A stretch of 64,000 bases of DNA from Aphrocallistes beatrix (taxonomy: Eukaryota > Porifera > Hexactinellida > Sceptrulophora > Aphrocallistidae). The translations under genes were made by a program, and so were the position numbers. How positions within the stretch are numbered: the first letter of the stretch is position 1; each line of letters begins with the position of its first letter. Below, in pieces: positions 119 to 50,920 of this stretch. The stretch spans positions 2,418,001 through 2,482,000 of the forward strand of contig OY725491.1 in the NCBI GenBank assembly GCA_963281255.1, given 5' to 3'. Below the pieces are notes generated by a model. The model ran no database searches. It was not told the origin of the DNA and saw nothing but the letters and a program-made list of their open reading frames with translations.

Positions 119-332
119 TAATATAAAAAGTGATAATCTAATTTGAGGTACACTGACTCAATAACATAACCGTTAACATGTGTATTCTCACAATAAGTTG
201 GAAGCACACGCCCATCCAGTCTGCAGGGGAGTTTTCATAATTAGAAAATAAGGCATGTGATAATAAAAGTGTTGAATTTGAGATACAAATATATCCTAAC
301 ATTCTACACATTTTTCATAATTTTTCTTGTAG

Positions 333-1478
333 AGGAGCTCAAAACTGGTTTTCTACAACAAAATAAAGAAAAGAAAATTCCAATCTTCCTTGCTACAGAT
401 CGTGCTGTTATTGAAATTATTTTGAAATATTCAGATGTTGAAGCAGTTGTTGACAAAGATATCGGTAGACTTATTCACTTTGCTGCCGCGGATAATCTCA
501 TAACTCTAGCAGAATGTTTGACCGGTATGAAGGTCGAGTTAGATATCGTGAATAGTAAAGGATTTTCGCCATTAAAAGTAGCTTCTAAACGTGGTAACGA
601 GAAGATAGTTGAAATATTGCTTGATAGAGCGAATCCTAATTTTATTGGAAAAAAAGTGCCAGGGTTTACCCCCCTAAACAATGCTGTGCAATTTGGTCAA
701 CTAGCCTGTGCTAAGTTGTTGATTGACCATGGTGCTGATTTAGTTCATAAAAATATGACGAATACGGCACTCCATTCGGCCGCTTTCGGTGGACATGCAA
801 ACATAGTAGAGTACTTAATCAAAGATATCGGAATGGATGTGAATCAGTTGAATAATGCAAAGAAGACAGCACTTTTTCAGAGTATCACTCAGGGTCACAA
901 TTCTGTGGCTAAAGTACTACTACGTTATGGTGCTGATCCTAACACATTTCTCAACCTAGATAATGAGACACTCGTGCACATTGCTGTAACCAACGGTAGA
1001 AAAGAAATACTCAAGATGCTTTTAAATGCCAAAGGAAAGCCAGACGAGCCACTGAAAAAGAGTGGAGAAACTCCCCTTATGTTATCTGCTATCGATGACC
1101 GAGCTGAGTTCATTCCCTTATTGATGTCACGTGGAATTACTCTTGCGAAGAAAGATGAAGAAGGGAACACACTTCTACATCATATCGCTAAATATGATTC
1201 TTGTGCTAGTGCCAGGTACATTTTAAAAAGAATTGGAACAATGAAGGGCATATCACAAGAATTTCAGTTATTTAAAAACAAAAACAAAGCCGATAAGTCT
1301 GCTTATGATATTGCTGTCGAGTGTAAGAATGAGAATGTTCTCAAGATTTTTATCGGATACGCGCCTAGCGACTATTTTAAAGAAAATCCGAAACGTTTAC
1401 ATGAACTATATGATTTAAAGTTATATCCTACATTGAAGACAGTTTTTGATAATCTGATCAAAGTGGATGAGGCTCTTG
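333..1478 (+). CDS. Ankyrin-repeat exon of a TRP-like cation channel (gene 1, first visible exon)
   Basis: This internal exon encodes about 382 residues with roughly eight ankyrin repeats, recognisable by units such as GFTPLNNAVQFGQLACAKLL, TALHSAAFGGHANIVEYL and ETPLMLSAIDDRAEFIPLL. In TRPA- and TRPV/NOMPC-type channels such repeats form the cytoplasmic N-terminal domain. The reading frame extends upstream to 257, but those residues are hydrophobic and a pyrimidine-rich acceptor ends at AG 331-332, so I start the exon at 333 (phase 1). The exon ends at 1478, before the donor GTAAGG. It leaves one base of a codon, and the exon at 3293 needs exactly one base. Earlier exons must lie outside the window. 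The family call is firm; the exact TRP subfamily is not. Confidence 0.85.
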
Positions 1479-1993
1479 GTAAGGCTATGTAAATATTTCA
1501 ATAATATTCTTTTAAGCTAGTATATCATGTGTTCCCAACTTTTTTTCACTCGTTTTTTTGTTTTTTTCGCTATAAACTATCCATGTTAGTATAAGGATGT
1601 ATTCTGTGAGAGCAGATACATACTCACTGATCGCTCTAGTTGAGCTAATGTTATTTTCTCGCCTAAACTTAGTAAAATTCCATATACATACTCTGTATTT
1701 TTATATATAACCATAGCTTACTGTATATAAGGCCTCACAGTAACTTGCGGATTTGGGACTATGGATGCGGTAGAAGATGGTTGAACTAATACAAATTTTC
1801 CGTATTAACCCATTCACATCCCAGTTCTATGCTAAAAATTTTAGGATAAAAACACTTAGAAGTGCCCCTAAACGGCCTCTGAAAATGACCAAATTTGTCA
1901 CAAATATAACCTAAATATAACCTATTGCGCAACCATATGGTGACTAATCTAAAATTTAACAACGGATATGGGTACTTTGACACCATATTTATA

Positions 1994-2927: not shown

Positions 2928-3292
2928 TATATGTTGGTAATACATTCCAAAGCTCTATTGTGCTTTGTTAATGATTTAAGACAGCTCATGTATTAGTTCA
3001 ACCATCTTCTACCGCATCCCAAGTCCCAAATCCACAAGTTACTGTGAGGCCTTATATCCAGTAAGCTATGATATGCCCTTAAAAATGTCAGACATCCACT
3101 TAATGGATAAACAAATTCAATGTTTTTGAATAACAAAGGATAGGAGAGGTTCAGGGAGACAAACCAAAATATTGAAGGCTATCGCGTTCCCTCGTTACAG
3201 TGAGAACCGCTTCCATATTTGTTTACTGAATATAAGTTTTATTCTTAAATTTTAAGTTATGAATAGATAGATAACTGATTTTCTTATTTTAG

Positions 3293-4606
3293 GTCAAGTT
3301 TCTGCGAACACAATTGTATTTGATTCGAATGAGGATGGAGTCTACCCCGACGATGAAGATTTCAAACCGCTCAAAAAATCATTGCTTCATAAATTAATAG
3401 ATTGTACAGAACCAGGGCTTAAATACCATCTCCTCATGAATATTATCGTTGACAAAAAATTGCGCTTTTACCGATGGTGGTATGTGGTATCATTCTTCTT
3501 CTATCTTTTCTTCTTTTTTTGCCTTGGCTATGCTCTGTTGCAAGCCTCAACTCTATGCGATTCTAGAATTTGGTTGTATGAAACTCCTTACGATTGGGTT
3601 AGGGGTATCTGTGAGGTAATTTCCATTCTTTATTTAATCTTCTTCTTATTCAACGAAGCGATTGAATTTTTTATTGAATGGACTCAAATCTACAACGACA
3701 AAGTATCCAGTGTAGAAGACAAGCCACTGACCGTTAAATATCTCAGCGAGGGCGCGGGCGGCACATCTATCATCACATCGGTCTTTGCTCTTTGGAATAA
3801 AACGAAATCGTTTGTAAGATATCTTGACAGGAAACTAAAATTCTTTCTCAGCGCATTCCCTGAGTACTTTGATGGCGTGTATAATTTTATCGATTGGGGC
3901 GGAATCACATCCTTTGTTATATTGATTCTCCTTCGGGCTTCTACTTCCTATGTTCAGTGGTCTTTTGCTGCTCTGACTTTCATATTTTTCAGCATTTCCC
4001 TAATCAAGTATACCAGAATCTTTCCAGCTCTCGGGGCCTATGTGAATAGCGTGTTTCGTATATTTGTGATAGACATCCCTCGATTCTTTGTAATAATTAT
4101 AATTATTCTGGTCGCCTTCATCGGAGGAATCCATTTGGCAGCGAGACAGCAGCCCATTAGCAGTCAGATGTCATCCGCTGAGAGTAATGATGGCCTCCCT
4201 TATCCCATTTGTAACGACTCAAGAACAGCTTTTTCTTGGTTCAATCCGGAATTGACTCAGACTTATGATCTTCGGCGTCCTCTATTATCGGGGATTATAT
4301 TTTTATTGGACGCTGGGCCTGGATCTTATGAAAATGATTTATTGAATTCTAATTTCTTTTTCGTAATCATTTATCTTTTGTTTGCGTTTACTATTATTGT
4401 TGTTATGTTGAATATCTTAATCGCTCAACTTTCAGAGACTTATGGAGAAATTGTTAAGGAAAATTCTTTCCATTATAAAATAGCCCTCGTTGTTAATTTG
4501 GAATTGAAGTCAAATCTAGCTTTTTCACTTGGAAAACGATTTAGAAAGTTCATTGCTTTAGAATCAATTGAAATCTCTATGGATTATTGGAAACAACTGA
4601 AAGAGA
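3293..4606 (+). CDS. Transmembrane and pore exon of the TRP-like channel (gene 1)
   Basis: This exon starts after the acceptor TTCTTATTTTAG and continues the ankyrin exon in frame. It encodes an acidic linker, then six hydrophobic segments: S1 near FYRWWYVVSFFFYLF, S2 near CEVISILYLIFFLF, S3 near WGGITSFVILILL, S4 near FAALTFIFFSISLI, S5 near FFVIIIIILVAFIGG, a pore loop around LLSGIIFLLDAGPGSY, and S6 near FAFTIIVVMLNILIAQL. The order and the S6 end (NILIAQLSETYGEI) are those of a TRP-type ion-transport domain. It should act as a tetrameric cation channel in a membrane. The exon ends before a consensus GTAAGT donor at 4607. Without splicing the frame adds 18 residues and stops at 4662, which gives a possible alternative C-terminus. 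Confidence 0.85.
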
Positions 4607-4662
4607 GTAAGTTATCTATACTATTAAAACTACAGTCGAACTTTGTTAATATGCAAAAATAG

Positions 4663-30140: not shown

Positions 30141-30332
30141 TATACTACGGGCGTTCAATAAGTTGTCGTTATTGCGATATATCTTGTTTGTTTGATTTGA
30201 TTTAGAGGTTAGCATATCTAATGTAACCTTACCGATGCTCTTTCTAATGATACTTTACTTTTTCAATTCTGAGATTTGGTTTTTATACTGTGGCTATTAT
30301 TAGTTTGGCATTTTTATATACTGGCATTTATT

Positions 30333-31232
30333 ATGGCTTCCGAGAGTGCAGATTTCAAAATTGAGCAGCGAGCCTATGTAAAGATTCGCACGCTTCTCCA
30401 ATTTTCTTCAACGGTTTATAATGATAGAACTCTTCCATATTCCACGATAGTCGACTGGGCTCGACGTTTTCGCGAGGGAAGAGAGTCGATCGAAGATAAG
30501 CCAAGAGCATGGAGGCCGATTTCCGGCGCCAGTGACAAATGTGTCCTCGAGGTTTCGGAATTACTTGAAGAAGACCCTCATATTTCATTGATGGAGATAG
30601 CTAATGCAGTTGGGGTCTCAACGGGAACCGCTCATACCATTGTGCATAACAATTTGCAATTTAGGAAAATCTGCGCTCGGTGGGTCCCGCATGCACTAAC
30701 ACAGGCCCAGAAAGCTAAGAGGGTTCAATGTGCTCAAAAGTTGCTTTCTGACTTCGATATAACCGACTCCAGGAGACTATTCGAGATCATGACTGGTGAT
30801 GAGACTTGGGTGCGTTCTAGCGAGCCTTTGTCAAAGGAAGCTAACAAAGTCTGGGTAGCTAAAGGCCAGGACCCACCAATGATCCCTCGACATGACTTCC
30901 GGAACCCCAAGGTTATGTACTGCATATTTTTTGATTCTTATGGTCCAGTGTGCCAGATTTGTGTCCCCAAGAATACCACTATCACTGGATCATTTTACAT
31001 GAATGAGTGCCTGTCTGAGGTTGAGAAATTCTACCACAATCGACGGCCAAGGACTGGGACTCGTGGACTGAGATTATTGCATGATAATGCCCGACCCCAC
31101 AAGACCAAGCTAGTAAGGGAAAAGTTGGATCGTATGAGAGTCGTAGAGCTAGATCATCCTCCCTACTCACCAGACCTCGCTCCATGCGACTTTTGTCATG
31201 GAAATACTTTAGTGTTCAAATACACATCCTAA
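30333..31232 (+). pseudogene. Mariner transposase, 3' truncated
   Basis: The frame from ATG 30333 encodes a mariner-family transposase. It has an N-terminal helix-turn-helix region (IEQRAYVKIRTLL, WARRFREGRESIEDKPR), the signature WVPHALT, the first catalytic Asp in TGDETWV, the second in LHDNARPH, and the third in YSPDLAPCDF (DD34D arrangement). After CDF near 31192 the protein becomes unrelated and stops, so about 40 C-terminal residues and the right terminus are missing. A candidate left end, TACTACGGGCGTTCAATA, lies near 30145. This copy has probably lost function through the 3' truncation; the lesion looks like a deletion. Confidence 0.85.
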
Positions 31233-36111: not shown

Positions 36112-37180
36112 TCATTTAGGATCTTCATCGCGAGCGCCATGGGGGGTCTTTATACTGTTCCATGAAACGGGGTTGCCAAAGAATTCCATCTGCCTGGTTA
36201 CCCGCGACGATCTTCTCGTTCCCCGATCACCTAATTCCAAATCTACCTCCATTCTATTCGATTTGTCTTGGGGGAATTCCTCGTAAGGTTCGTTGTCCTC
36301 TCCTTCTGCCGGTGTTACACCTTCGGGGCTTTCCTCGTGAAATTCATTGCCTAATTCATCCGGAAGTGTCAATCCTATCGGCATCGGAAATGTATTTGCC
36401 GCTGATTTTTTGCATCGATTCAGATGTACCCACTTCACCTTTTTGCTTACGGGATCTCTCAACAATACATTGGCCCCCTTTCTCCCATCGCGCACCGTGT
36501 ACGGACCGATGTACCATGGATCCAATGAGTCGTGCTTGGATTCATTGCTTAAATATACTCGATCTCCCTCAGTAATGCTGCTGTCCTTCCCTTTGTCATA
36601 CGCAGACTTTATTCTCTCTTTAGCCTCTTTCGAATTATTTAGGGCCACCTCTCGCAACTCTGCTTGTATTCTCTTTAGCTCAGACACAGTATCATGTTCG
36701 TCTAGGTTTCCCATCGCATCGTTGTTCTCGAGCATTGCGTCGATCGGGCCCCTCAATCTGTTCCCGTACATCAATTCCTGAGGACATAGTCCGGTAGAGG
36801 CGTTCACCAATGTGTTACACGTGAAACTAACTTCGCTGAGCAGACGCGGCCATTCTGTTTTAGGGATGTCCCGTTCTAACAGCAGGCACCCCATAACCTG
36901 CTTAACTGTACCAATAGAGCGCTCTGCTAAGCCATCCCCTTCGGGATGATATGGCGAAGAGTGTCTTTTGTCAATCCCTAACTTTGCACATAGTTTGAGG
37001 ATTACCTCTCCGTCGACGTTTCGTCCCTGGTCGGACACCAAGATTCTTGGAACACCATGCCTATGTATATCCCGATGTAACTACACTCTCAATGCTCTCA
37101 GACGTCTGATCATGTAGTGCAACTAGTTCAATATGCCGAGTGAACATATCGACAACTAGGAGGAAGTACCTGTAACGCTC
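36112..37180 (-). pseudogene. Gypsy integrase core and C-terminal tail
   Basis: The core begins near 37170 with the first catalytic Asp region (LLVVDMFTRH). It continues, after frame breaks, with VSDQGRN, then HSSPYHPEGDGLAERSIG including the catalytic Glu, and a tail with GPYTV and VKWVHLNRC. The zinc-binding segment expected between RNase H and the core is deleted. The start of the longest open piece is 37041. Confidence 0.75.
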
Positions 37181-37181
37181 A

Positions 37182-37838
37182 TCACTCCATGGTAGGGTGG
37201 CCGTGCACCATGCTAATCACCTTTCCTTTTAGAGCATTCGGAACCGCGACTTGTCTTCCTCGACACAACATATCGTCTGTTATATTCATGTCTCGATAAG
37301 ATTTGAACTTCCCTGAGCATATTCCACCTTGTTTAAACTGCTCCTTAGCGCGCTTGATAGCTTCATCATTCTCTTGCGCTGACCTTAATTCATTAATCCA
37401 CTCCGGGTCACCTGAAAGAACGTAGACCCGATCTTCGAACGTATTCTCGCAGTTAACCTTTTCATCGTAAAAGTTGGTACCTCTGCTCAGTGTATCCGCT
37501 ACAGTATTGTCACTCCCTTTCCGATATACAACCTCGTAATCTAGGTCCTCTAGTTCCATTATCCATCTAGCGAAGGTATTGCGGGGGTCTTTTTGCTTCT
37601 TCATCCACAGGAGAGGGATATGGTCCGTGATCAGGTAGACATGGGTGGCCGCTCTCAAATAGTCGTACCACTTCCGCGTAGCGCTGACCAAAGCCCAAGC
37701 TTCTGTTTGACCGGCAGAATACCTCCGCTGACTCCCATTCAATGTCGTGGAAAAATAACTAATCGGACGCAATATACCTGTACGCGGATCTTTCTGACAA
37801 TACTGCTGCCACCCCCATTGAACTAGCATCAGCCTCAA
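37182..37838 (-). pseudogene. Gypsy RNase H domain
   Basis: It contains the PISYFSTTLN, YSAGQTEAWALV and YLITDHIPLLWM segments and the YRKGSDNTVADTLSRG ending characteristic of Ty3/gypsy RNase H. It is separated from the reverse transcriptase frame by a frameshift near 37840-37870. Confidence 0.8.
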
Positions 37839-37868
37839 CGAAAAAGGGTGAGTCCCATTTGGGATGGG

Positions 37869-38970
37869 CTAACACCACCGGTTGGTGGGCAAGCCTCCGG
37901 CATAGCGATGGAATGCCTCTTGACACTTGACATCCCAATTCCAGCTAGAAGACTTCCTCATTAGCATGTGTAGTGGTTCGGCGATAGTTGATAGATCCGG
38001 GATATGCTGCCTATAATAATTTATCATCCCCATAAACCTCTGCAGCTCCTTTATTCTTGTTGGAGTAGGGAAGCTAACGATGCGCTCCACCATCTCGCCC
38101 ACTGGCCTACGGCCGTCTTCAGAAATCTCGTGTCCAAGGAAAACACCGCTACCATACCCAAAACGACATTTGTCGCGCCTGAGCTGGATGTTAGCTACTT
38201 TAAAGGATTCGAGCGCCCTTCTCAAGTCGATCAGATGACTCTGAAAATCCAACGAATGAGTTATGCAGTCGTCCACATATGACTCTGTATTCTTGGCTCC
38301 GTTGAGAGCGACGTCTAGGATACGCTGGAATGTACTCTGGCTGTTACACAGGCCGAAGGGCATCACTAACATCTCGTAGTGGCCACGAGGAACGGTAAAT
38401 GCGGTTTTCTCTACATCTTCCTTTTTTAGCTTTACACACCAATACGCCGATGCGGAATCTAGGAAAGAGAAAATCTTACTCCCCTCTAACGCATCGAAAA
38501 GTGATTGTGGGTCTGGCATGGCGTAAGCGTCCTTTCTTGTATGTTCATTTAGCTTCCGATAGTCGATGGCAAACCGCAAGCTACCATCCTTTTTCTTGAC
38601 CATTACCACTGGACTGCTCCATGGTGAGTTGGAGGGCCGACAGATACCATTCCGTAGCATCTGCTCTATCTGCCTGTTAATCTCTGCTTCTGTCCCAGGA
38701 GACACGCGCCTCAACCTCTGTTTCACTGGCAAGGCCCCACCAGTATCGATGGCATGTTCTCCAAGGTGCGTTGTAGCTGGCAGCTGGCTTCTTGGGATTA
38801 AGGGCGAAAACTCCATCAAATTCCGTCAGAAGTTCTGTCAACGCCCTTCTTTCAGTTTCGTTCAATCCTGGGTTGACGTCAAAGCGTGCATTGCTATCCA
38901 CGTCTTGTGAGTCACACAGTTGAGAAACTACAGCACGTGTAACGGCGGAGCCGCCTCTAATAATCCCCAA
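37869..38970 (-). pseudogene. Gypsy reverse transcriptase with upstream linker
   Basis: Linker residues (ERRALTELLTEFDGVFAL) lie in one frame from 38970. The main frame from 38819 holds reverse transcriptase motifs: AIDYRKLN, FSFLDSASAYWCVKL, MPFGLCNSQSTFQRI, the YVDDC active-site box, and FLGHEISEDGRRP. The active-site box is intact but the frame is broken at both ends. Confidence 0.8.
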
Positions 38971-41759: not shown

Positions 41760-42489
41760 GAAATGTTAATATTCTAATACATCTGGAAATATTCATTTAG
41801 GAGCTTTCTAATTCGAAATCTTCGCATTCGAATTAGTTATTGTAGGATATTTCTAATCAATTATTAAACATGAATACATATTTTATGTAGACAGTGAAAA
41901 TGCGGCTTGAAGGCCTTAGTTCAGCATAACAAATGCCCGTATTAGCTGGTTTATTTAAAAATGTCTATAGCCTGCGAGAAAAAATGGATAAAATTTTGCT
42001 TTTTATTAACTATTTTTTTCTATATTATGGATTTAGAAGATTTTCTACTGAAAATGCGCACTATAAAATTGATTATATTACACTTTACAATAAATGATAT
42101 TTCCTTCTTAACCCACGCTTGCCACAGGAATGTGTTGCGTCATTTCCGGTTTAAGCAATTTTCAATGGGGAAGCCATATAAGTTTGGGGTTACTACTATA
42201 AATAGAAAAATCCCAAATGCTTTCAAGGGTTAATACCACGAAAAGGTGGACCGAATAAATAAATTGTGTAAAAGAAGATATTTTAATGAAAGAAAAACCA
42301 CACACCTAACTAACAACCAAAAGAATAATGCACAAATTTGGTTGTCATGCACTAGTATATAAACAGTAGTAGAGAGGGGAGAGTAAGTACAAGTATATGC
42401 ACAACTACAAAAAGATAGAGGGCCAAAAAATGAATCAAAGAGCAATAACTAAGATGGATGGTTCTAAGACCTAACCAAACTAACCTAAC
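41760..42489. other. 3' flank of the IP3R-like gene; no other gene seen
   Basis: Near 41815-41870 a segment (TCGAAATCTTCGCATTCG) repeats part of the MITE at 39342-39820. I do not see a clear poly(A) signal for the minus-strand gene. Confidence 0.4.
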
Positions 42490-45400
42490 CTAACTAGCCC
42501 TATTGTTTTCAAGTTTGAGGATTTTCGCCAAAATTTGGCTGAGGAGTTTGGACTGTTCTTCTAGCGTGTCAGCAACGCTCACATCGTCTTCCGGCCTGAG
42601 ACAACGAGCTTCGTTGTGTGGGAAAAACACGGTTTCGTCGTCCTTTAAATTCTTGAATACAAAACTCTCTGTAGCGCTGTGGTCACTTTGGTCTACGGTG
42701 TCCAAGTAGAGGAAGAAACTGTAATAATCCCACATGTTGTGTTCTTTTCTAACGTGCGTTTTGAATCCATTACCCTTAAGATCGAATTTATAATTTTCAA
42801 TTCCGCAAATGAAGCAGACGTTTTTCATATCTTCTTCTCTTGCAAATTTTTCGTCCCTCAGTTCAGCGAACGTATCTACGATAATGCCGAACACAATATT
42901 CAACCCAATTGTCGTGATGATGATGAAAAAGGCAACGTCATAAATAATACGGATTACTTCTTGTGAGAATTCCATTGAGCCTTGTGGAAGAAAGAGACCA
43001 ATCGTATCCAAGAGACCCCACCGCGCAATGCTGACGACGCATTCGTAAAGAGAGTGACAAAAGATATACGCCTCGCTTTCAGGGTTTACAGTAGACTGGG
43101 CTTGTTGGTAGAATAATGCAAATGCGATAACTGAAAATATGTAAATGATGATCATCCCGAAAATTGCAACGTAGATTAGGGATTTGCCATTTTTAGTGAC
43201 GGCAAGCAATACCCGCCTGAGGACTTCACTTCTCTCTATGATGTAGAGTAGCGATATCGGATACAAATACCCACGTAAAGGGAGCGAAAATATGGAGGAA
43301 AGGAAAATCATCCAAATGAATAAAACATGAGGTCCGATTATGTTGATTTTAAGATGTTCCGTTTCTCCTTTTTTCTTTCCTTTTTTTGCTTTTTCCTCTC
43401 CTTCTGTAAGTTTTCTTATCCATTTGAATTCCCACTTAATGTTCATGTTCTTAATGTTTTCCAAAATATGAAAATATTTAAGAAATATCTTTGGAACGAC
43501 GAAGTTGGCTTTATTTACGATGTAGAAAAGGATCAAAAGATCTAGTGCCATTAAGAGATGAATGATTCCTAGCGGGAAGAATGCATAGAAATACCAGAAT
43601 GGAACCACTGGTAGAATTGGTGGGATTACGTTGGAATTGGAAGGATTCATGACACAGTCGTAAAAAATCGTGGCGTCGTTTACAGTCATGGCTTCTACTC
43701 GGCTGCAAGGTGTGACCCAGGTTGAGAGCATGAATAGGTTAATGATGAAGCTCCACAACAAAAATATGTGTTTCCTCCAATTTTGACCCTTAAGATAGTA
43801 GAACATCACGGGGTTGTTTTTCAAGTTGTTTTGGTATTTTTGATCAACTTTGACTGCTTTAAACCAATCAAGGAAGTCCCTTAGTTTATCTTCAGCTGAA
43901 TCACGGTTCACACCTTCCTTCACATTTTCGCAGACTTCTTCTGTTATCATTCTAGATTTCAGACTCTTGAAATGTACCTTATTCAAGATGTGAACATTAT
44001 CTTCTGTAATGTATGTTATTTCAATGGATTTAGAATTTGTTTCGCAGTAATTCCATGCTTCCATTACGGATTCTTGATTGTCTTGTTCCTGTGGAATTAT
44101 CCTGCAACCTTCCTTCGACTCTTCACCGCCAAAATCATTTAAATGTACAAGAAAGAGGTAATAACGAAACATAACATCTTCGGCCTTAGTGATAACTCTC
44201 TCGTCCAATTTAGTACTAATCTTTTTGCTCATTTTGGGGTGTGATCTAATGTCATTGAGTAAACCGATTATTTGATGGACACTATCGACATCTAGAAGAT
44301 TGATGATATCTCTGACGAGATCCTTGGTGGACAAACTTGTCTCTTCGGATATTACTTGTAGCATGCGGATGATTGAATCGTATAATTTTGTCATCTCTTC
44401 GAAAGAACAAAATTTGAAAATGGTAGTCTGGAAAATTCGGTTTATCACATCTATAATTTTTGATCTAAAGGCACTTCTCTGGTTCTTATAATTTCCGCCC
44501 ATAAACTCAGTTAGGACCTTAAACACTTCTATTATAAGAACGATACTATCCTTATTTATATCTTTGTAAAGTACTGTTAAGAACTCAACTGTTTTTGCTA
44601 CCATGTTGATAGACTCGGGGTTGTCAGACTGTTCACGGAAGTAGTCTTGAAGAAATTTCTGCTGGCCATCGCACATAAGACCCATCAGTTTGAAACAAAC
44701 CTGGATATCGTGTAGAGTATTCTTAAAAGAAGCGCCTTTTAATCGTGAAATACGCGTACTTTCTTGTTGAAGGTCTTTGATTTTATCCTCCTCCTCCTTT
44801 ATTATTCGAAATCGTGTTTTGTGGACTAGGAATCCTTCTGGCTCCTTGGTGGTCTCATGGTCAGGAATGCGGGATGTAGCATCCTGTCCATGTCTTGCAT
44901 GTGTATATAGGGGTTCTAACTCAATTCCACTCTTCCCTGATATTATTAGAGACCTTTCTCTAGATTCTATTTCTTCGCTTATGAACTGGGTTGGCGGTCT
45001 AGGATTACGGATGTTTAGATCTTTGCAAATATGTTCGAAGCTTTTTCTCATTTGACTAGAAGACAAATCTATCTTTTTTAACTCTTCTATAAGGAACCGA
45101 CTTTCGCGAATAGTGTTACTCCCATGCAATAAAACATCAGACATTTGATTGAAGTATTTTTCATCTGAAATTGTAGCCAAAGATTTAAACTTTGACTGTA
45201 TGTACTCATTCCCCCCATAGAGCATGTCAGTGAGTAAAGCTAAGCTTTGAGCAGCCACACTTTTGCAAGGATGATCTATCAGAGTTAATGCTTTCAGGCA
45301 TGTATCGTCTAGATTTTGAATTTCTTCCTGGATTTCTTTCACCTTTTCAAACTCAGTACGAAATTGAATAGGATTTTGATTCTTCAAATGATCAATGTAC

Positions 45401-46308
45401 ATAATTTCGTTGTGTATAGCTCCTCGTAATAGTTGTAATGATTTTATGTCCAATCTTTCTTGTTTTAATTTCTCCCGTTCGGGTAGCGCGTTAAATTTTT
45501 GGTAGGAATAATCAATTTGTCGCACGATACTCCTAGCAAACTTTACTTTCGCTTCACAGCCGTCTTTCGTATGCGTAAAAAACAATGCTAAGTGTTTCTG
45601 AAAGGATTTTCCCAATGGCATAGAATCAGGCAGAGAATCATCGCATAATTCATCTAAAAATTCTGAATATTTCGTATTATCCCCTCCTATCCCGCCTATT
45701 TGAACTTCCACAGTGTTTTTGCCCCAATAAGCTCTTCTCAGATGTTTCACGTAATTGTTGAATCGTTTATTTAGTTCAATCTCATCATGATATTCTACTT
45801 GGTAGCTTCTTGCTGACTGGGATACAAAATTATCCTCTTCGTCTACAAGCATAGAGAATTTTCTTAGTTTCTCTTTATCGAAATGTTGATCAATTTGTGG
45901 GAGGCGTGATTTTATCTCAGGATGGGTTAGAATGGAGAGGACTGCATCGTACAGGAGTTTTGCTTGATGTTGTTTTTCAATGAGAGGTTGCAGGATAATG
46001 GACAGTTCGATTAACTTTTTGCATATCTCAAACGATACTGATAAGGGATCATATTCTTTCAGGGATGCACTTTCCTTTGGACTGGTTGAAAAATAGCGTC
46101 GGTAGAATACCAAGATGATAGGCAAAATTCCTTTCATGAAGTAGTTAATTAATGCAGGGTCAGAGAAATCAATTAATGCCATCGAAGATTTTGAACGATG
46201 TTTAGGTATTTCATACGATACGCTAGATTGTTGACGGATCGTTTTCTTTAGTTCATTTGAATTATCGTGAGAATATACCTCTAGATATTTTAGATTGAAG
46301 TCAAAAGT
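42490..46308 (-). CDS. IP3-receptor-like channel, C-terminal half (gene segment 3)
   Basis: An open frame of about 1,270 codons (ATG-to-stop part 46182-42490) carries the second half of an inositol-trisphosphate-receptor-like protein. It holds a RIH-associated helical region (FKLMGLMCDGQQKFLQDYF, VFKVLTEFMGG), then the membrane domain with segments near FLLWSFIINLFML, FFPLGIIHLLMALDLLIL, ILPLR-like loops, VLRRVLLAVTKNGKSLIYV, YIFSVIAFALF and FGIIVDTFAELRDEK. The C-terminal zinc-binding pattern CFICG...EHNMWDY follows, and the last residues form a short coiled coil. In the family this forms a tetrameric calcium-release channel of the ER. The pore-loop stretch reads ARWGLLDTIGLFLPQ, with no GGGxGD filter. 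The frame joins segment 2 through a one-base shift between 46290 and 46308. Confidence 0.85.
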   Translation of the reverse strand, partial: TFDFNLKYLEVYSHDNSNELKKTIRQQSSVSYEIPKHRSKSSMALIDFSDPALINYFMKGILPIILVFYRRYFSTSPKESASLKEYDPLSVSFEICKKLIELSIILQPLIEKQHQAKLLYDAVLSILTHPEIKSRLPQIDQHFDKEKLRKFSMLVDEEDNFVSQSARSYQVEYHDEIELNKRFNNYVKHLRRAYWGKNTVEVQIGGIGGDNTKYSEFLDELCDDSLPDSMPLGKSFQKHLALFFTHTKDGCEAKVKFARSIVRQIDYSYQKFNALPEREKLKQERLDIKSLQLLRGAIHNEIMYIDHLKNQNPIQFRTEFEKVKEIQEEIQNLDDTCLKALTLIDHPCKSVAAQSLALLTDMLYGGNEYIQSKFKSLATISDEKYFNQMSDVLLHGSNTIRESRFLIEELKKIDLSSSQMRKSFEHICKDLNIRNPRPPTQFISEEIESRERSLIISGKSGIELEPLYTHARHGQDATSRIPDHETTKEPEGFLVHKTRFRIIKEEEDKIKDLQQESTRISRLKGASFKNTLHDIQVCFKLMGLMCDGQQKFLQDYFREQSDNPESINMVAKTVEFLTVLYKDINKDSIVLIIEVFKVLTEFMGGNYKNQRSAFRSKIIDVINRIFQTTIFKFCSFEEMTKLYDSIIRMLQVISEETSLSTKDLVRDIINLLDVDSVHQIIGLLNDIRSHPKMSKKISTKLDERVITKAEDVMFRYYLFLVHLNDFGGEESKEGCRIIPQEQDNQESVMEAWNYCETNSKSIEITYITEDNVHILNKVHFKSLKSRMITEEVCENVKEGVNRDSAEDKLRDFLDWFKAVKVDQKYQNNLKNNPVMFYYLKGQNWRKHIFLLWSFIINLFMLSTWVTPCSRVEAMTVNDATIFYDCVMNPSNSNVIPPILPVVPFWYFYAFFPLGIIHLLMALDLLILFYIVNKANFVVPKIFLKYFHILENIKNMNIKWEFKWIRKLTEGEEKAKKGKKKGETEHLKINIIGPHVLFIWMIFLSSIFSLPLRGYLYPISLLYIIERSEVLRRVLLAVTKNGKSLIYVAIFGMIIIYIFSVIAFALFYQQAQSTVNPESEAYIFCHSLYECVVSIARWGLLDTIGLFLPQGSMEFSQEVIRIIYDVAFFIIITTIGLNIVFGIIVDTFAELRDEKFAREEDMKNVCFICGIENYKFDLKGNGFKTHVRKEHNMWDYYSFFLYLDTVDQSDHSATESFVFKNLKDDETVFFPHNEARCLRPEDDVSVADTLEEQSKLLSQILAKILKLENNRAS

Positions 46309-49300
46309 TCACTTGTATTTTCCAGAAATTCCCAAAATTTTGGATTGTCGTCTATGGTAGTATCAAATCCATATGAAACCTTATGTGTATTCAGGTACAC
46401 CCAGTTAAAGAACGAGGCAAATTGGAATTTCCGGTCGAAAGTCAATTCCCTCTGATTTAAGATATCCAAAAGTTCATCAACCGTGATCATGGATTGACAA
46501 ATTGACTCGTGATGAAGGTTCTCTCCTTCACAAAGTGAAGCCATCAAATCGAAAGTAGCCAGCATCAACTCAATTCCATTGTCATCGGAGTCTTCGCATT
46601 TCAGTAAATTTGCTCTTATCTCATCCTTCCTTACTTCGGTTCCTAGAAACTCATTAATTCTTTCAGGCTTGATGGACATAAATTTTTTCATAACATGAAC
46701 CTGGTTGAAATGGAGTGGTAAATCGATTTCTTCAACTTTAGTGATTGCCTTGAGTATTCCCAGAATCGAAGGGATATATTGAACTTGGAGAGTTTCCCTT
46801 TGCTCCATCAGAGAACAAATCAATTTGATGTCATCAATTTTCACATTCATCACAATATCTTGAGCGCCTGTAAACATTTCTGTCAGTAAATCAGCTAATT
46901 CCTTTGGAGCTGCGTCAAATAAAGATTTTTCGGCTAGTATTTCAAGTCGGTTGTAGAGTCGTTGCTGAACGATAATATTGTCCAGTGCCATTCTCTGTAA
47001 GAGTCTGCATGAGACTTTTGCAAGTTCAGTAGGGCCAGAGTAAGCGAAAGTATCAGTTAGAGAAGATGCCAGCGCATCTCTAGCTTCTAGTATTCTCTCT
47101 ATGAGGTTTAGGACATCTGCTAAAATGCCCAAATTGTAGAGAATTTTTTGGTTCTGGGGGTGTGGTTCAGTATTTTGATTGGAAAGCGTACAAGCCTGAA
47201 CGAAACACTCTAGAATGTCATTGAGCTCATTACACACATCGCTATCTGTTAAAGTGGATTTTAGGAGCCGACGAAACTGAGGAAGTTGTCCGCTTGTCTG
47301 ATTGAAAAAAATGAGAGAATTTTCATTAACAAGAACTTGCGTTTGGATTGCCTTCTCGAATAAATTGTTTTCTACCATGTACTGATTGTTCAATAGGCGA
47401 AGTGATGCTGTCACGACATCAAGGTTATCGTATTGAGTTAGGTCCAAAAGGATAGTTTCAAATTTATCTTCTCCTTGATAATCTTCAAATTTGTATGTTG
47501 CATAATCTAAAATTCTACTTGACAAGTGGTTCACTGCTTTGCTTGCCAGATTCGGATATTCATGGATATTAAATTTTGAGTTGTGCAGCTTATCTAAATA
47601 GTGATTAAGCGTGTCTTCCGTATTTGTAACCTGATCAAGGATATTTTTTCGAGCTTCTATCCTCGTCTCTTTTTTAACGACACGGTACAAAAATATTAGA
47701 CGCTGCAATCTTTTGAGAAATCTATAGTTCATAAATAACTCAAAGATGTGTAAAGTCTTAATCTTAATTTCGAATATCGGTTCATTTCTTGGAGTGTTTT
47801 CATACCTCCCTTCTTCTTCAAAATGAGAATGAGGTTGTGAATATTCCGATTTTTTTCCCTTTGGTGAGTGCATATCCTTTTTTCCATTTAAGATATTGAT
47901 TAGCAGTTTCAATAGTTCATCTGCATCGTCCTGATTAGTATAATAACCAAACTTGGTGAATAATAGGATCATCTCCAATACGACTGTTATGAGGTTGTTA
48001 GTTTCTTTAAAATCCTCACTTCCATATATGGATAATCCATTAAAAAATTCAAGGAACCAGATTTTCATTTGGGGGAAATATTCATTCGTAACCCCACTAA
48101 TTGCAGTGTCATTCATGTCAGCATTGTCTTTGGGATTCTCTATGCAATCTTCATATTTGAAAGTTAGATTGAAGTTTTCAAGTACAGCACGATTAGCACC
48201 AACATCGATAAACATAGTATTTATGAGTAACATAGTATTTATGAGTAGAGCGATTTTAGTTCTAATCTGTGGATGTATATCTTCATCTTTTAAACCATTA
48301 AATAGCACATCGAATGAAAATTGAGTTTTTAGGATTTCGATAGCGTTGTCATTACTCCCATGGCAAAGTTTGGCAAAAAAGTCAAGCTGTGCCAGCAAGT
48401 ATTTGCGATCATTTTCCAAATTGTACTCCGAAAGAAGTTTGTATCCTGCTGGGTTCAGCGGGGAAATTGCATAGACTTTGTTGTCAGAATGGAGTTCCAT
48501 ACGAAATATTAAGCTTTGAATCTGTTGATCTAATAAATGATTAGCAAGTACTTCTTGGTTCTTCTGTATCGGATTCTTATTAGCCACACACATGACGTTG
48601 AAATAGTTGAATATCTGTCTGTTATGTGTCTCTGCCAATTTATAGAATAATTTTTTCGTCTTTTCTTCAAAGTCAAGACTGAACTGTTCTATAATGACTT
48701 TGTTATCCCGAACTAGTTCTATCAAAGTTGATTCTGCGTTGATTTCTAAATCGAAATGAGATTCAAAAATTGGGATGAAATCGTAGGTGTAGTTTTCATT
48801 TTTTCTACTTTGACCCTTAAGATAAGCCTCTATAACTGTGTACACCTTTTTGGTTGCAGCTTTACGAATCTCATAATTTGGTCCGTTTCTAAGATTAGGA
48901 GGAATGTCCTTAAACCTATTTTGGATTTCCATCAGTAATTTTATAACTCCAAGGTTACGGAGAAGTTTTTGCCGTTTCTTTCTTTCTTTCGCTTTATCTT
49001 TATTGCCAGGAGTTTCGAGTATCCAATTAGCCAGAGATTCCAGGGATGTCACTATTTCAGCCGATGGCTTGATTTCAATATCGTAGGTTTTGAGATAATT
49101 TTTGATGATCGGTAAGTATCCCATTACATAATGGAAATAGGACAAAAGTTTAGGATCAACCTCTTCTAGGGTGAATGCATCACGAAATTCGTTGGAGTGC
49201 TCTGCTAGTATTTGGTAGCAAGCTGCATTATCCCATCTAAATGTTGATTGATTTGTTTCAATAGGGAATGTTCTACCATGACAATCCTCCGCTTTTAACC

Positions 49301-49634
49301 AAGTTTTGGTTTTTGAATGAAAAATTCGAGCATGCGATGCGAAAACAATATTTTCTGATCCCTCATTGATTGAAGAAGGGTAGAAAGTGAAACTTGTATT
49401 CAAACGTGTTTCATCATCTTCAAGTTTTACTAGCTTGACAATAAATTTGGAATAATCTTCAATTACAGATAAATACCTCTGGGTTAGCAAATGCTTCAGT
49501 CGAAATGAGTCTTGACGCTTTATTTCATCACCGGATAGAGGAGAGCTGGTTAGTTCAATTTCCCAATAGGTAATTGCAGAAGTTGAAGCAGGTTTAAGTT
49601 CTCCAGATTTAGTCTGTCTTTGCGAAGATGCACA
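46290..49634 (-). CDS. IP3-receptor-like channel, middle part (gene segment 2)
   Basis: This frame of about 1,110 codons starts in the frame of WEIELTSSPLSGD and FRLKHLLTQRYLSV, the third MIR beta-trefoil region of IP3 receptors. It continues through the ligand-binding armadillo domain: ERKKRQKLLRNLG aligns with the binding helix of animal receptors, and GQSRKNENY with the later binding site. A RIH domain (LDFFAKLCHGSNDNAIEIL) and long helical repeats follow. From memory of the vertebrate alignment, the Lys and the second Arg of the first site and the Arg-Lys pair of the second are kept, while one Arg is Lys and the Tyr is Ser. The frame ends at 46290 while the next segment continues in another frame. 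Confidence 0.8.
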   Translation of the reverse strand, partial: CASSQRQTKSGELKPASTSAITYWEIELTSSPLSGDEIKRQDSFRLKHLLTQRYLSVIEDYSKFIVKLVKLEDDETRLNTSFTFYPSSINEGSENIVFASHARIFHSKTKTWLKAEDCHGRTFPIETNQSTFRWDNAACYQILAEHSNEFRDAFTLEEVDPKLLSYFHYVMGYLPIIKNYLKTYDIEIKPSAEIVTSLESLANWILETPGNKDKAKERKKRQKLLRNLGVIKLLMEIQNRFKDIPPNLRNGPNYEIRKAATKKVYTVIEAYLKGQSRKNENYTYDFIPIFESHFDLEINAESTLIELVRDNKVIIEQFSLDFEEKTKKLFYKLAETHNRQIFNYFNVMCVANKNPIQKNQEVLANHLLDQQIQSLIFRMELHSDNKVYAISPLNPAGYKLLSEYNLENDRKYLLAQLDFFAKLCHGSNDNAIEILKTQFSFDVLFNGLKDEDIHPQIRTKIALLINTMLLINTMFIDVGANRAVLENFNLTFKYEDCIENPKDNADMNDTAISGVTNEYFPQMKIWFLEFFNGLSIYGSEDFKETNNLITVVLEMILLFTKFGYYTNQDDADELLKLLINILNGKKDMHSPKGKKSEYSQPHSHFEEEGRYENTPRNEPIFEIKIKTLHIFELFMNYRFLKRLQRLIFLYRVVKKETRIEARKNILDQVTNTEDTLNHYLDKLHNSKFNIHEYPNLASKAVNHLSSRILDYATYKFEDYQGEDKFETILLDLTQYDNLDVVTASLRLLNNQYMVENNLFEKAIQTQVLVNENSLIFFNQTSGQLPQFRRLLKSTLTDSDVCNELNDILECFVQACTLSNQNTEPHPQNQKILYNLGILADVLNLIERILEARDALASSLTDTFAYSGPTELAKVSCRLLQRMALDNIIVQQRLYNRLEILAEKSLFDAAPKELADLLTEMFTGAQDIVMNVKIDDIKLICSLMEQRETLQVQYIPSILGILKAITKVEEIDLPLHFNQVHVMKKFMSIKPERINEFLGTEVRKDEIRANLLKCEDSDDNGIELMLATFDLMASLCEGENLHHESICQSMITVDELLDILNQRELTFDRKFQFASFFNWVYLNTHKVSYGFDTTIDDNPKFWEFLENTSELLTSI

Positions 49635-50578
49635 TCATCAGTAACCACTTCGGTTTTCCAATCTTCGTCTTCAAATACACAAGAACCAGAAGCCGCCACA
49701 TAACACTGCTGCTGCAAATGATGTAGGCGGATGACTGAACCACCGCGAATGTTTTTCAATGCCAGATTTTCGTCCTCCTCCTGACGCCGAAACTTGCTAT
49801 GCGAATAGATGGAGAATGGAGAGTCAACAGCTGAGGCATTAATTTCGTAGCTATTAGGCTGAATACCGTAAAAAGTATCTTTCAATGGAGTTTTACTAAT
49901 TTGCAAGTATTGATGGGTTTTCACATTTTCGAGTACAATTTGGTCCTCAAAACGAATCTTGTCCCCAAGATTATTAATTCTGTATTTGGGAATGATTTTG
50001 AATTGGACATTTTTTCCATTCGTTTCAAATAACATAACTTTGAGACTAGCTCTATCAACTACTGCGGTTTGGCTATCACTCACCCCTATGAATTTATCAG
50101 TGTAATGATGCTGGAGTTGGCAAATGTTACCATATGCAATCTCTTTCCCTAATAAACTCTGCTGTTCAGAGGCGTTTTCCTTTTTTTCGTTCTCTACTTC
50201 CTTTCTCAACCGAAAAAGTTCGCTTTCTTTCTCTTTAGTCAACTTTCCCCTCATATTGAACTTGGACAACTCTTCCTGCTCAGAACTTTTGTTGGGACCT
50301 AAGACACGAAATGCGGCCATATGCATATCGGGCGCTGGGTTAGGATTTTCATCATATGAAAATTTATCAAGAGTTACTATTTGATGGAGAGGACTGCTGA
50401 TGAATGAAGAAACGGCATTAATAGACTGAGTGTTTTCAGTTTCAGTTACAACCAAATAAATGCTATCTCCGTAACAAAGCGACTCTTGAGAATGAGTTGA
50501 GAGCGTAACGGTATTTACTGTATCAAAGCTCGCTCCTGGTGAGGTGATGTTAACAAGAGTGTCCTCTTGTTCCGACAT
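49550..50578 (-). CDS. IP3-receptor-like channel, N-terminal part (gene segment 1)
   Basis: ATG at 50578 opens a frame with the suppressor and first MIR domains: SLCYGDSIYLVV, then AFRVLGPNKSS, KEIAYGNICQLQHHYTDKFI, and IIPKYRINNLGDKIRFEDQI, as in IP3 receptors. Residues up to about 319 align with the family. The last 20 or so before the stop at 49550 do not, and the aligned sequence continues in the frame of segment 2. Together the three segments make about 2,690 residues, the usual size of an IP3 receptor. A signal peptide is not expected and none is seen. Confidence 0.8.
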   Translation of the reverse strand: MSEQEDTLVNITSPGASFDTVNTVTLSTHSQESLCYGDSIYLVVTETENTQSINAVSSFISSPLHQIVTLDKFSYDENPNPAPDMHMAAFRVLGPNKSSEQEELSKFNMRGKLTKEKESELFRLRKEVENEKKENASEQQSLLGKEIAYGNICQLQHHYTDKFIGVSDSQTAVVDRASLKVMLFETNGKNVQFKIIPKYRINNLGDKIRFEDQIVLENVKTHQYLQISKTPLKDTFYGIQPNSYEINASAVDSPFSIYSHSKFRRQEEDENLALKNIRGGSVIRLHHLQQQCYVAASGSCVFEDEDWKTEVVTDDVHLRKDRLNLENLNLLQLLQLPIGKLN

Positions 50579-50920
50579 GATGTTTTGTTAGCTTTTCTAG
50601 GAACTAATAATTACAGAAAGAATTTAAATACTATCAATTCTGCATCAAAATTCTAAGTGATTTGACACGAACTATATGGAGTGCTAAGTGGCAACTCAAA
50701 CATTATGCAACACCTCGAGTACAACATTGTCAGTTAATCCAGTGGATGAAAATTTTTCTTACTACAAAGGTTTTTTGTGGGTCACGCAGCGAATGTAGCT
50801 AGCGTGCTTGCAGGTATACTACAATGTATATTTCACTTTATTATTCATTCTATAGACGGGTTACGGTTGGTCTGAAAACTCTTAAATTTAACCCGAATTC
50901 TATCTGATATTTTTTAAACG
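50579..50920. other. 5' flank of the IP3R-like gene
   Basis: The sequence is AT-rich with no recognisable promoter motif. It would hold the promoter and 5' UTR of the minus-strand gene if the ATG at 50578 is in the first exon. Confidence 0.3.

What the first reader, a model, noticed from the sequence alone, without database searches (positions are those of the whole stretch)
42980..43060. IP3R-like channel with a rewritten selectivity filter
IP3 and ryanodine receptors share a GGGxGD filter just before the last membrane helix. Here the equivalent position reads ARWGLLDTIG, although the flanking parts (the NGKSLIY helix, the VDTFAELRDEK end and the zinc motif CFICG...EHNMWDY) are well kept. 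A changed filter in an otherwise conserved membrane domain predicts altered ion selectivity or a non-conducting, regulatory paralogue.
Basis: partly seen in the sequence, partly recalled or inferred. Interest (0 to 1): 0.75.

Follow-up and report, generated by a model that had tools for sequence, protein, structure and literature searches.

The report
IP3-receptor-like genes with altered pore loop
An animal genome carries a small family of calcium-channel-like genes, related to the IP3 receptor, in which the short loop that normally selects ions has been replaced; the copy in this window has this loop but also two breaks in its reading frame.

Summary
On the minus strand, ARWGLLDTIG (42997-43026) sits where IP3/ryanodine receptors carry GGGxGD; the S6 gate and zinc motif around it are kept. 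It is not a local error: three other loci of the same 100.5-Mb animal genome share the loop (RWGLLDTIG, RWGLLEKIG, RWGLIETVA). One, on contig C11, is an unbroken 2702-codon frame with IP3R domain architecture.

Selection has kept this pore: window versus closest paralogue gives dN/dS 0.25 overall, 0.06 over 120 pore/tail codons. But the window copy has two one-base frame breaks (about 49620 and 46293): recent decay or assembly error. Only 1 of the 4 copies is unbroken.

No canonical GGGxGD paralogue was found: the intron-rich IP3R reads GGGIGH, two RyR-like genes GGGVSD and GGNLD.

Best reading: a lineage-expanded IP3R-like subfamily with a non-canonical pore, inferred to be a less selective cation channel; a non-conducting regulatory role is a close rival. 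Nothing here measures conduction. New variant of a known kind; variant filters have precedent in Paramecium.

The parts
42490..50578 (-). IP3R-like gene (ATG at 50578, stop at 42490-42492); the coding stretch aligns with paralogues without introns; reading frame broken twice
   Evidence: ORFs P0003, P0002, P0001; alignment with three paralogues
49874..50479 (-). Ins145_P3_rec N-terminal domain
   Evidence: Pfam PF08709, 1.8e-19, P0003 37-238
49290..49601 (-). MIR domain
   Evidence: Pfam PF02815, 1.2e-8, P0002 12-115
48525..48995 (-). RIH domain
   Evidence: Pfam PF01365, 8.6e-16, P0002 best stretch 214-370
44431..44706 (-). RIH_assoc domain
   Evidence: Pfam PF08454, 8.8e-20, P0001 535-626
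42850..43260 (-). Ion_trans pore domain
   Evidence: Pfam PF00520, 8.8e-13, P0001 1017-1153
43171..43191 (-). NGKSLIY, aligned to IP3R3 NGRSILL before S5
42997..43026 (-). ARWGLLDTIG: replaced selectivity filter
42874..42897 (-). IVFGIIVD: S6 gate segment, kept (IP3R3 LIFGVIID; the gate role is recalled)
42730..42816 (-). C-terminal zinc motif CFICG...EHNMW, kept
49619..49621 (-). first frame break: one base fewer than paralogues C10 and C11 (C14 lacks the segment)
46292..46294 (-). second frame break: one base fewer than the three paralogues
42230..50883 (-). extent of DNA homology with the C10 paralogue (90.5% over 8708 aligned bases): gene plus about 300 bases on either side
   Evidence: blastn

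Best explanation
This is one of four loci of an IP3R-like subfamily, closest to IP3R by score (no tree was built) and without introns in the aligned coding stretch, in which the GGGxGD loop is replaced by a shorter RWGL(L/I)(D/E) loop. Because 4 of 4 share it, the replacement most simply predates their separation. The intact member has the IP3R domain order, the gate segment and zinc tail are kept, and the pore was held by selection (shown). Most likely mechanism (inferred): a tetrameric endomembrane channel subunit in which four acidic side chains, not a GGG backbone cage, line a shorter filter, giving a pore with lower Ca2+ preference or conductance than a normal IP3 receptor. The window copy was itself constrained until recently; its two one-base breaks mean that it has just begun to decay or that the assembly is wrong there; the C11 copy is unbroken.
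For: Four paralogues share the replaced loop; C11 is an unbroken 2702-aa frame with Ins145_P3_rec, MIR, RIH, RIH_assoc and Ion_trans and no SPRY/RyR match. Best PDB relatives of C11 are IP3Rs (IP3R2 244 bits against RyR2 161). dN/dS window-C10: 0.25 over 2597 codons, 0.056 over 120 pore/tail codons. In the 14-codon filter core 1 nonsynonymous against 5 synonymous changes, in the 40-codon P-loop 3 against 8, binomial P = 0.006 and 0.0006, uncorrected. Window branch dN/dS 0.23 (bootstrap 0.16-0.33) against 0.61 (0.46-0.82) for the visibly broken C14 copy. RWGL and the acidic residue recur in 4 of 4 although synonymous sites to C11 are near saturation (dS about 1.5). Of the five regions compared, S6 plus zinc tail is the most alike between window and C11 (80% aa identity against 64% overall).
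Against: Conduction was not tested. In mammalian IP3Rs one change in this motif (G2498S in IP3R2; D2550A in IP3R1) already abolishes Ca2+ release (PMC7939385, PMC6700175, passages seen), so a loop this different may not conduct. Between window and C11 the 14-residue filter core is only 50% identical, below the 64% average, so the filter is not held especially tightly. Three of the four copies are broken: window (two one-base breaks), C10 (one-base insertion), C14 (in-frame stop plus a missing 1.4 kb). The 83 codons before the first break give a window-branch dN/dS of 0.64. The subfamily's IP3 contacts are only partly kept. A single-sequence AlphaFold model was uninformative (mean pLDDT 42.6).
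Confidence: 0.5

Rival explanations
1. Non-conducting regulatory or scaffold subunit: the pore is dead, but the protein still assembles with itself or the intron-rich IP3R and acts through IP3 sensing, store-operated entry or membrane contacts.
For: 1 of 6 filter positions kept. Single filter mutations make pore-dead mammalian IP3Rs, which still support ER-mitochondria contacts (PMC6700175) and store-operated entry (PMC10406432); heterotetramers with two G2498S subunits keep partial function (PMC7939385); passages seen in each. The filter core drifts faster than S6/tail between C11 and the rest.
Against: The P-loop shows fewer amino-acid than synonymous changes between window and C10, and RWGL plus an acidic residue recur in 4 of 4, which a dead loop need not show.
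Confidence: 0.33
2. The window locus (as distinct from the subfamily) is a pseudogene or decaying copy with no full-length product. This does not exclude either reading of the subfamily.
For: Two single-base frame breaks relative to paralogues; sister copies C10 and C14 also broken; dN/dS 0.64 on the window branch in the 83 codons before the first break.
Against: Whole-gene window-branch dN/dS 0.23 (0.16-0.33), like C10 and unlike C14; the 1272-codon C-terminal frame is open. One break is in a short A run, a common place for sequencing error (recalled).
Confidence: 0.4
3. Local sequencing/assembly error or missed exon hides a normal GGGxGD filter.
For: Single-base assembly errors at other places in this gene cannot be excluded.
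Against: Three other loci carry the same kind of loop; 0 matches to an unsplit GGGxGD codon pattern in the window.
Confidence: 0.01
4. It is an ordinary, canonical IP3 receptor.
For: IP3R domain order in the intact paralogue; several basic IP3-contact positions of the arm domain kept in alignment.
Against: Filter replaced; a separate intron-rich IP3R on C4 (fetched as C4:566000-593499) is closer to human IP3R3 in the pore and tail (52-53% in two exons, against 37-39% for the four copies).
Confidence: 0.03

Closest known systems
Animal IP3 receptors (ITPR1-3)
   Same: Ins145_P3_rec-MIR-RIH-RIH_assoc-Ion_trans order, about 2700 aa in the intact paralogue, S6 gate segment, C-terminal zinc motif
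   Different: GGGVGD replaced by a loop two residues shorter in the window copy; no introns in the aligned coding stretch; four paralogues
Paramecium Ca2+-release channels (CRC-I to VI)
   Same: Lineage expansion of IP3R/RyR relatives in which three members have the complete consensus filter and others only a core motif or variants of it; CRC-V has a slightly shortened pore-TMD6 distance (PMC3213138, passages seen)
   Different: A ciliate; the sentence on CRC-VI was cut in the passages that I saw, and I did not read further
Oomycete ITPRs and PKDRR proteins
   Same: Variant filters such as GGGLG(G/S) in some oomycete ITPRs; PKDRR carry LGA or AG(D/E) (PMC7399828, passages)
   Different: PKDRR filters are described as related to PKD channels, whereas here the pore core is IP3R type
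Pore-dead laboratory IP3Rs (D2550A, G2498S)
   Same: Filter lesion in an otherwise intact receptor (PMC7939385, PMC6700175, PMC10406432, passages)
   Different: Point mutations made in the laboratory or found in disease, not a loop kept by selection

Membership tests
IP3 receptor (ITPR) | Ins145_P3_rec, MIR, RIH, RIH_assoc, Ion_trans in this order, about 2700 aa | tested here: met
   Window ORFs (split over three frames); intact C11 paralogue, one 2702-aa frame
IP3 receptor (ITPR) | Closer to IP3R than RyR; no SPRY/RyR repeats | tested here: met
   (C11: IP3R2 244 against RyR2 161 bits); by score only, no tree
IP3 receptor (ITPR) | GGGxGD selectivity filter | tested here: not met
   1 of 6 positions kept; codon pattern absent from the window
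IP3 receptor (ITPR) | S6 gate segment and C-terminal CxxC...H zinc motif | tested here: met
IP3 receptor (ITPR) | Six membrane helices near the C-terminus | tested here: inconclusive
   A hydropathy scan shows about five hydrophobic clusters between P0001 856 and 1140, one of them long; the structure model was too poor to use
IP3 receptor (ITPR) | IP3-contacting residues | tested here: inconclusive
   Alignment of C11 with IP3R2, IP3R1 numbering recalled: R265, K508, R511, R568 and K569 equivalents present, Y567 to S, R504 to K; R269 region has ambiguous gaps. R269W disrupts IP3 binding (PMC7939385, passage)
IP3 receptor (ITPR) | IP3-gated Ca2+ release | not testable with these tools
   needs expression
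Ryanodine receptor | SPRY and RyR repeats, about 5000 aa | tested here: not met
   Absent from C11; present in frames of two separate RyR-like loci
Functional protein-coding gene (window copy) | One open reading frame, or frames joined by introns | tested here: not met
   Two one-base frame breaks relative to paralogues; assembly error not excluded

The most novel reading that the evidence does not exclude
In this animal lineage the whole intracellular Ca2+-release channel set has moved away from GGGxGD (0 of the 7 loci found keep it exactly), and the four-copy subfamily is a natural class of IP3R-type channel with a short acidic-ring filter, so that IP3-type gating has been coupled to a different ion pore.
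Probability: 0.2. Interest if true: 0.75.

Novelty: new variant of a known kind. Interest (0 to 1): 0.5.

Why it matters
The GGGxGD loop is described as conserved in human, schistosome, trypanosome and Leishmania homologues (PMC3194816, passages), and single changes there kill mammalian receptors (PMC7939385, PMC6700175, passages). A natural animal subfamily that replaced it and still shows purifying selection would be a ready experiment on what the filter is for, and on whether IP3R-type proteins have lasting roles without canonical Ca2+ conduction.

Tried and rejected
Structure: one AlphaFold job on residues 835-1236 of P0001 alone gave mean pLDDT 42.6 and pTM 0.27, so no fold search was run. 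Organism: two 18S searches returned machine errors. The printed 90-base heads and tails of eight end stretches (both ends of C4, C10, C11, C14) show longer repeats and, by eye, no TTAGG or TTAGGG array. The mitochondrial contig C28 fits invertebrate code 5 (judged against COX1 as I recall it), but I could not name a phylum. Recent retroposition: the copies lack introns in the aligned coding stretch, but I saw no poly-A tract at the 3' homology boundary near 42230 (by eye), so it is left open. In-frame 'stops' listed at codons 1871, 1889, 2388 and 2393 I take as alignment slippage beside indels, since P0001 is open and one search found a stop in the C14 match only (the one at codon 1654). Missed canonical exon: rejected (one search gave 2 pattern hits in 58 loci, one in the mitochondrion and one in the flank upstream of the C10 copy). 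Literature: seven answered searches listed no report that I recognised of an animal IP3R subfamily without GGGxGD; five of the seven lists were capped (20 of 2,397, 20 of 47, 20 of 62, 10 of 23 and 15 of 69 shown), I saw titles and abstract openings only, and most subscription papers and all bioRxiv preprints are missing from the library.

Full report
What is there. The window lies at C4:2418001-2482000 of a 100.5-Mb genome in 28 contigs. Contig C28 is an 18-kb mitochondrion; its COX1 match has 11 TGA codons under the standard reading and, judged against COX1 as I recall it, reads well under invertebrate code 5, so the source is taken to be an animal; I could not name it. On the minus strand three overlapping open frames (50587-49550, 49634-46290, 46308-42490) together carry the IP3-receptor domain series Ins145_P3_rec, MIR, RIH, RIH_assoc, Ion_trans.

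It is an IP3R-like protein with the filter replaced. phmmer against solved structures gives IP3R3 at 1.2e-41 and RyR2 at 8.9e-36 for the C-terminal frame. Human IP3R3 HGLRNGGGVGDIL aligns to WGLLDT--IGLFL: 1 of the 6 motif positions identical and two residues missing, gap placement being uncertain. The S6 gate segment (IVFGIIVD against LIFGVIID) and the CFICG...EHNMW tail are kept.

It is a shared trait of four loci. A search of the genome with the C-terminal frame gave 7 matches at 7 loci: the window itself; C10:3.35 Mb (88% identity), C14:3.85 Mb (81%, one in-frame TAA), C11:3.66 Mb (62%); and three more distant ones (29-38%). The four close loci read RWGLLDTIG, RWGLLDTIG, RWGLLEKIG and RWGLIETVA in the order window, C10, C14, C11. 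The C11 frame is open for 2702 codons from its first ATG and carries the domain set without a SPRY or RyR match; its best solved relatives are IP3Rs (IP3R2 244 bits, RyR2 161).

No canonical filter was found elsewhere in the genome. RIH_assoc gives 8 matches at 7 loci, and a human pore query gives 9 matches, 8 of them at the same 7 loci plus one weak hit at E 0.17. The intron-rich IP3R on C4 (fetched as C4:566000-593499) has a filter exon reading WQGMREGGGIGHVLRKPS, followed by a GT and with an AG before the next matching exon. Two RyR-like loci, recognised by SPRY, RyR and RIH domains in their large frames, read AVRAGGGVSDVI and IPGGNLDISEK in their pore frames. So 0 of 7 keep GGGxGD exactly, and none of the fetched stretches of these loci holds the unsplit codon pattern. 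This rests on one assembly, and is the part most worth an independent check.

The window copy has two frame breaks. DNA alignment of the four loci shows the window one base short at about 49620 (a short A run, against C10 and C11; C14 lacks the segment) and one base short at about 46293 (against all three, C11 being diverged there). C10 has a one-base insertion; C14 has the stop and lacks about 1.4 kb matching window 48837-50257. These are not introns: the paralogues that hold the segment run straight through. I cannot tell recent decay from assembly error. So 3 of 4 copies are broken and 1 of 4 is unbroken.

Selection. Nei-Gojobori counts in the frame of C11: window-C10 dN/dS 0.249 over 2597 codons and 0.056 over 120 pore/tail codons; window-C11 0.147 and 0.057, with dS 1.5 or more. 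Three-way branch estimates on 1690 of 2686 aligned codons (the rest dropped for gaps, stops or nearness to gaps) give window 0.227 (0.160-0.327), C10 0.207 (0.150-0.279), C14 0.607 (0.457-0.822). The short segment before the first break (83 codons) gives 0.64 for the window, against the trend but with few changes; the other two segments give 0.195 and 0.225. In the P-loop (40 codons) window-C10 shows 3 nonsynonymous and 8 synonymous changes, in the 14-codon filter core 1 and 5; binomial P 0.0006 and 0.006, uncorrected. Against C11 the window's filter core is 50% identical, below the 64% average, while S6 plus tail is 80%. In the broken C14 copy the P-loop has changed more than the average of that copy (63% against 82% identity to C10). 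So the new loop has been constrained in the window and C10, but the gate and tail are constrained more.

How it may work. Shown: replaced loop shared by four loci, IP3R architecture, purifying selection. Inferred: the recurring acidic residue (D, D, E, E) could form a four-fold acidic ring in a shorter filter. Published tests: G2498S in the IP3R2 filter binds IP3 but releases no Ca2+ as a homotetramer, while heterotetramers keep partial function (PMC7939385, passages); pore-dead D2550A IP3R1 still supports ER-mitochondria contacts (PMC6700175, passages) and store-operated entry (PMC10406432, passages). These make the non-conducting reading a serious rival. IP3-contact residues are partly kept in C11 by the alignment, with the R269 region ambiguous; R269W disrupts IP3 binding (PMC7939385, passage).

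Comparison with what is known. Paramecium has an expanded set of such channels in which three members have the complete consensus filter and others a core motif or variants of it (PMC3213138, passages). Some oomycete ITPRs read GGGLG(G/S) (PMC7399828, passages). Trypanosomatid and schistosome homologues are reported to keep GGGxGD (PMC3194816, passages). In searches, seen as partly capped lists of titles and abstract openings, I recognised no report of an animal IP3R subfamily lacking it. Because the filter test fails, I call this IP3R-like, not an IP3 receptor.

Duplication. Homology between window and C10 covers 42230-50883, the gene plus about 300 bases each side; outside it the flanks give only shorter scattered matches (the longest 626 bases at 69%), which look like dispersed repeats.

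Noticed in passing
L034 7551-7736 (C4, about 591.05-591.24 kb): The intron-rich IP3R of this genome has GGGIGH, histidine at the place of the acidic residue that ends GGGxGD (its loss, D2550A, is reported to make IP3R1 pore-dead; the equivalence of the position is recalled).
   Followed up: partly
L030 304-750 (C10) and L029 6762-7166 (C14): Two RyR-like genes with altered filters, GGGVSD and GGNLD; the C14 one holds a 3123-codon open frame.
   Followed up: partly
window 245-1492 + and 3835-4461 +: An ankyrin-repeat frame followed by an Ion_trans match at E 5.3e-5 in the genome search, though the frame 3271-4662 gave no Pfam family at 0.01; possibly a TRPA-like gene. 17 of the 89 Ion_trans matches lie on C4 between 1.56 and 1.90 Mb.
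   Followed up: no
window 36112-38825 - and 30273-31232 +: Fragments of a retroelement (reverse transcriptase and RNase H over cut-off, integrase core below its cut-off) and a Transposase_1 (mariner-type) frame.
   Followed up: no
L043 1795-2385 (C28): A 197-aa mitochondrial frame that I could not assign; the mitochondrial protein genes that I recognised by eye lie on one strand.
   Followed up: no
ends of C4, C10, C11, C14 (L045-L052): The printed 90-base heads and tails share satellite-like motifs and show no TTAGG or TTAGGG array by eye.
   Followed up: no
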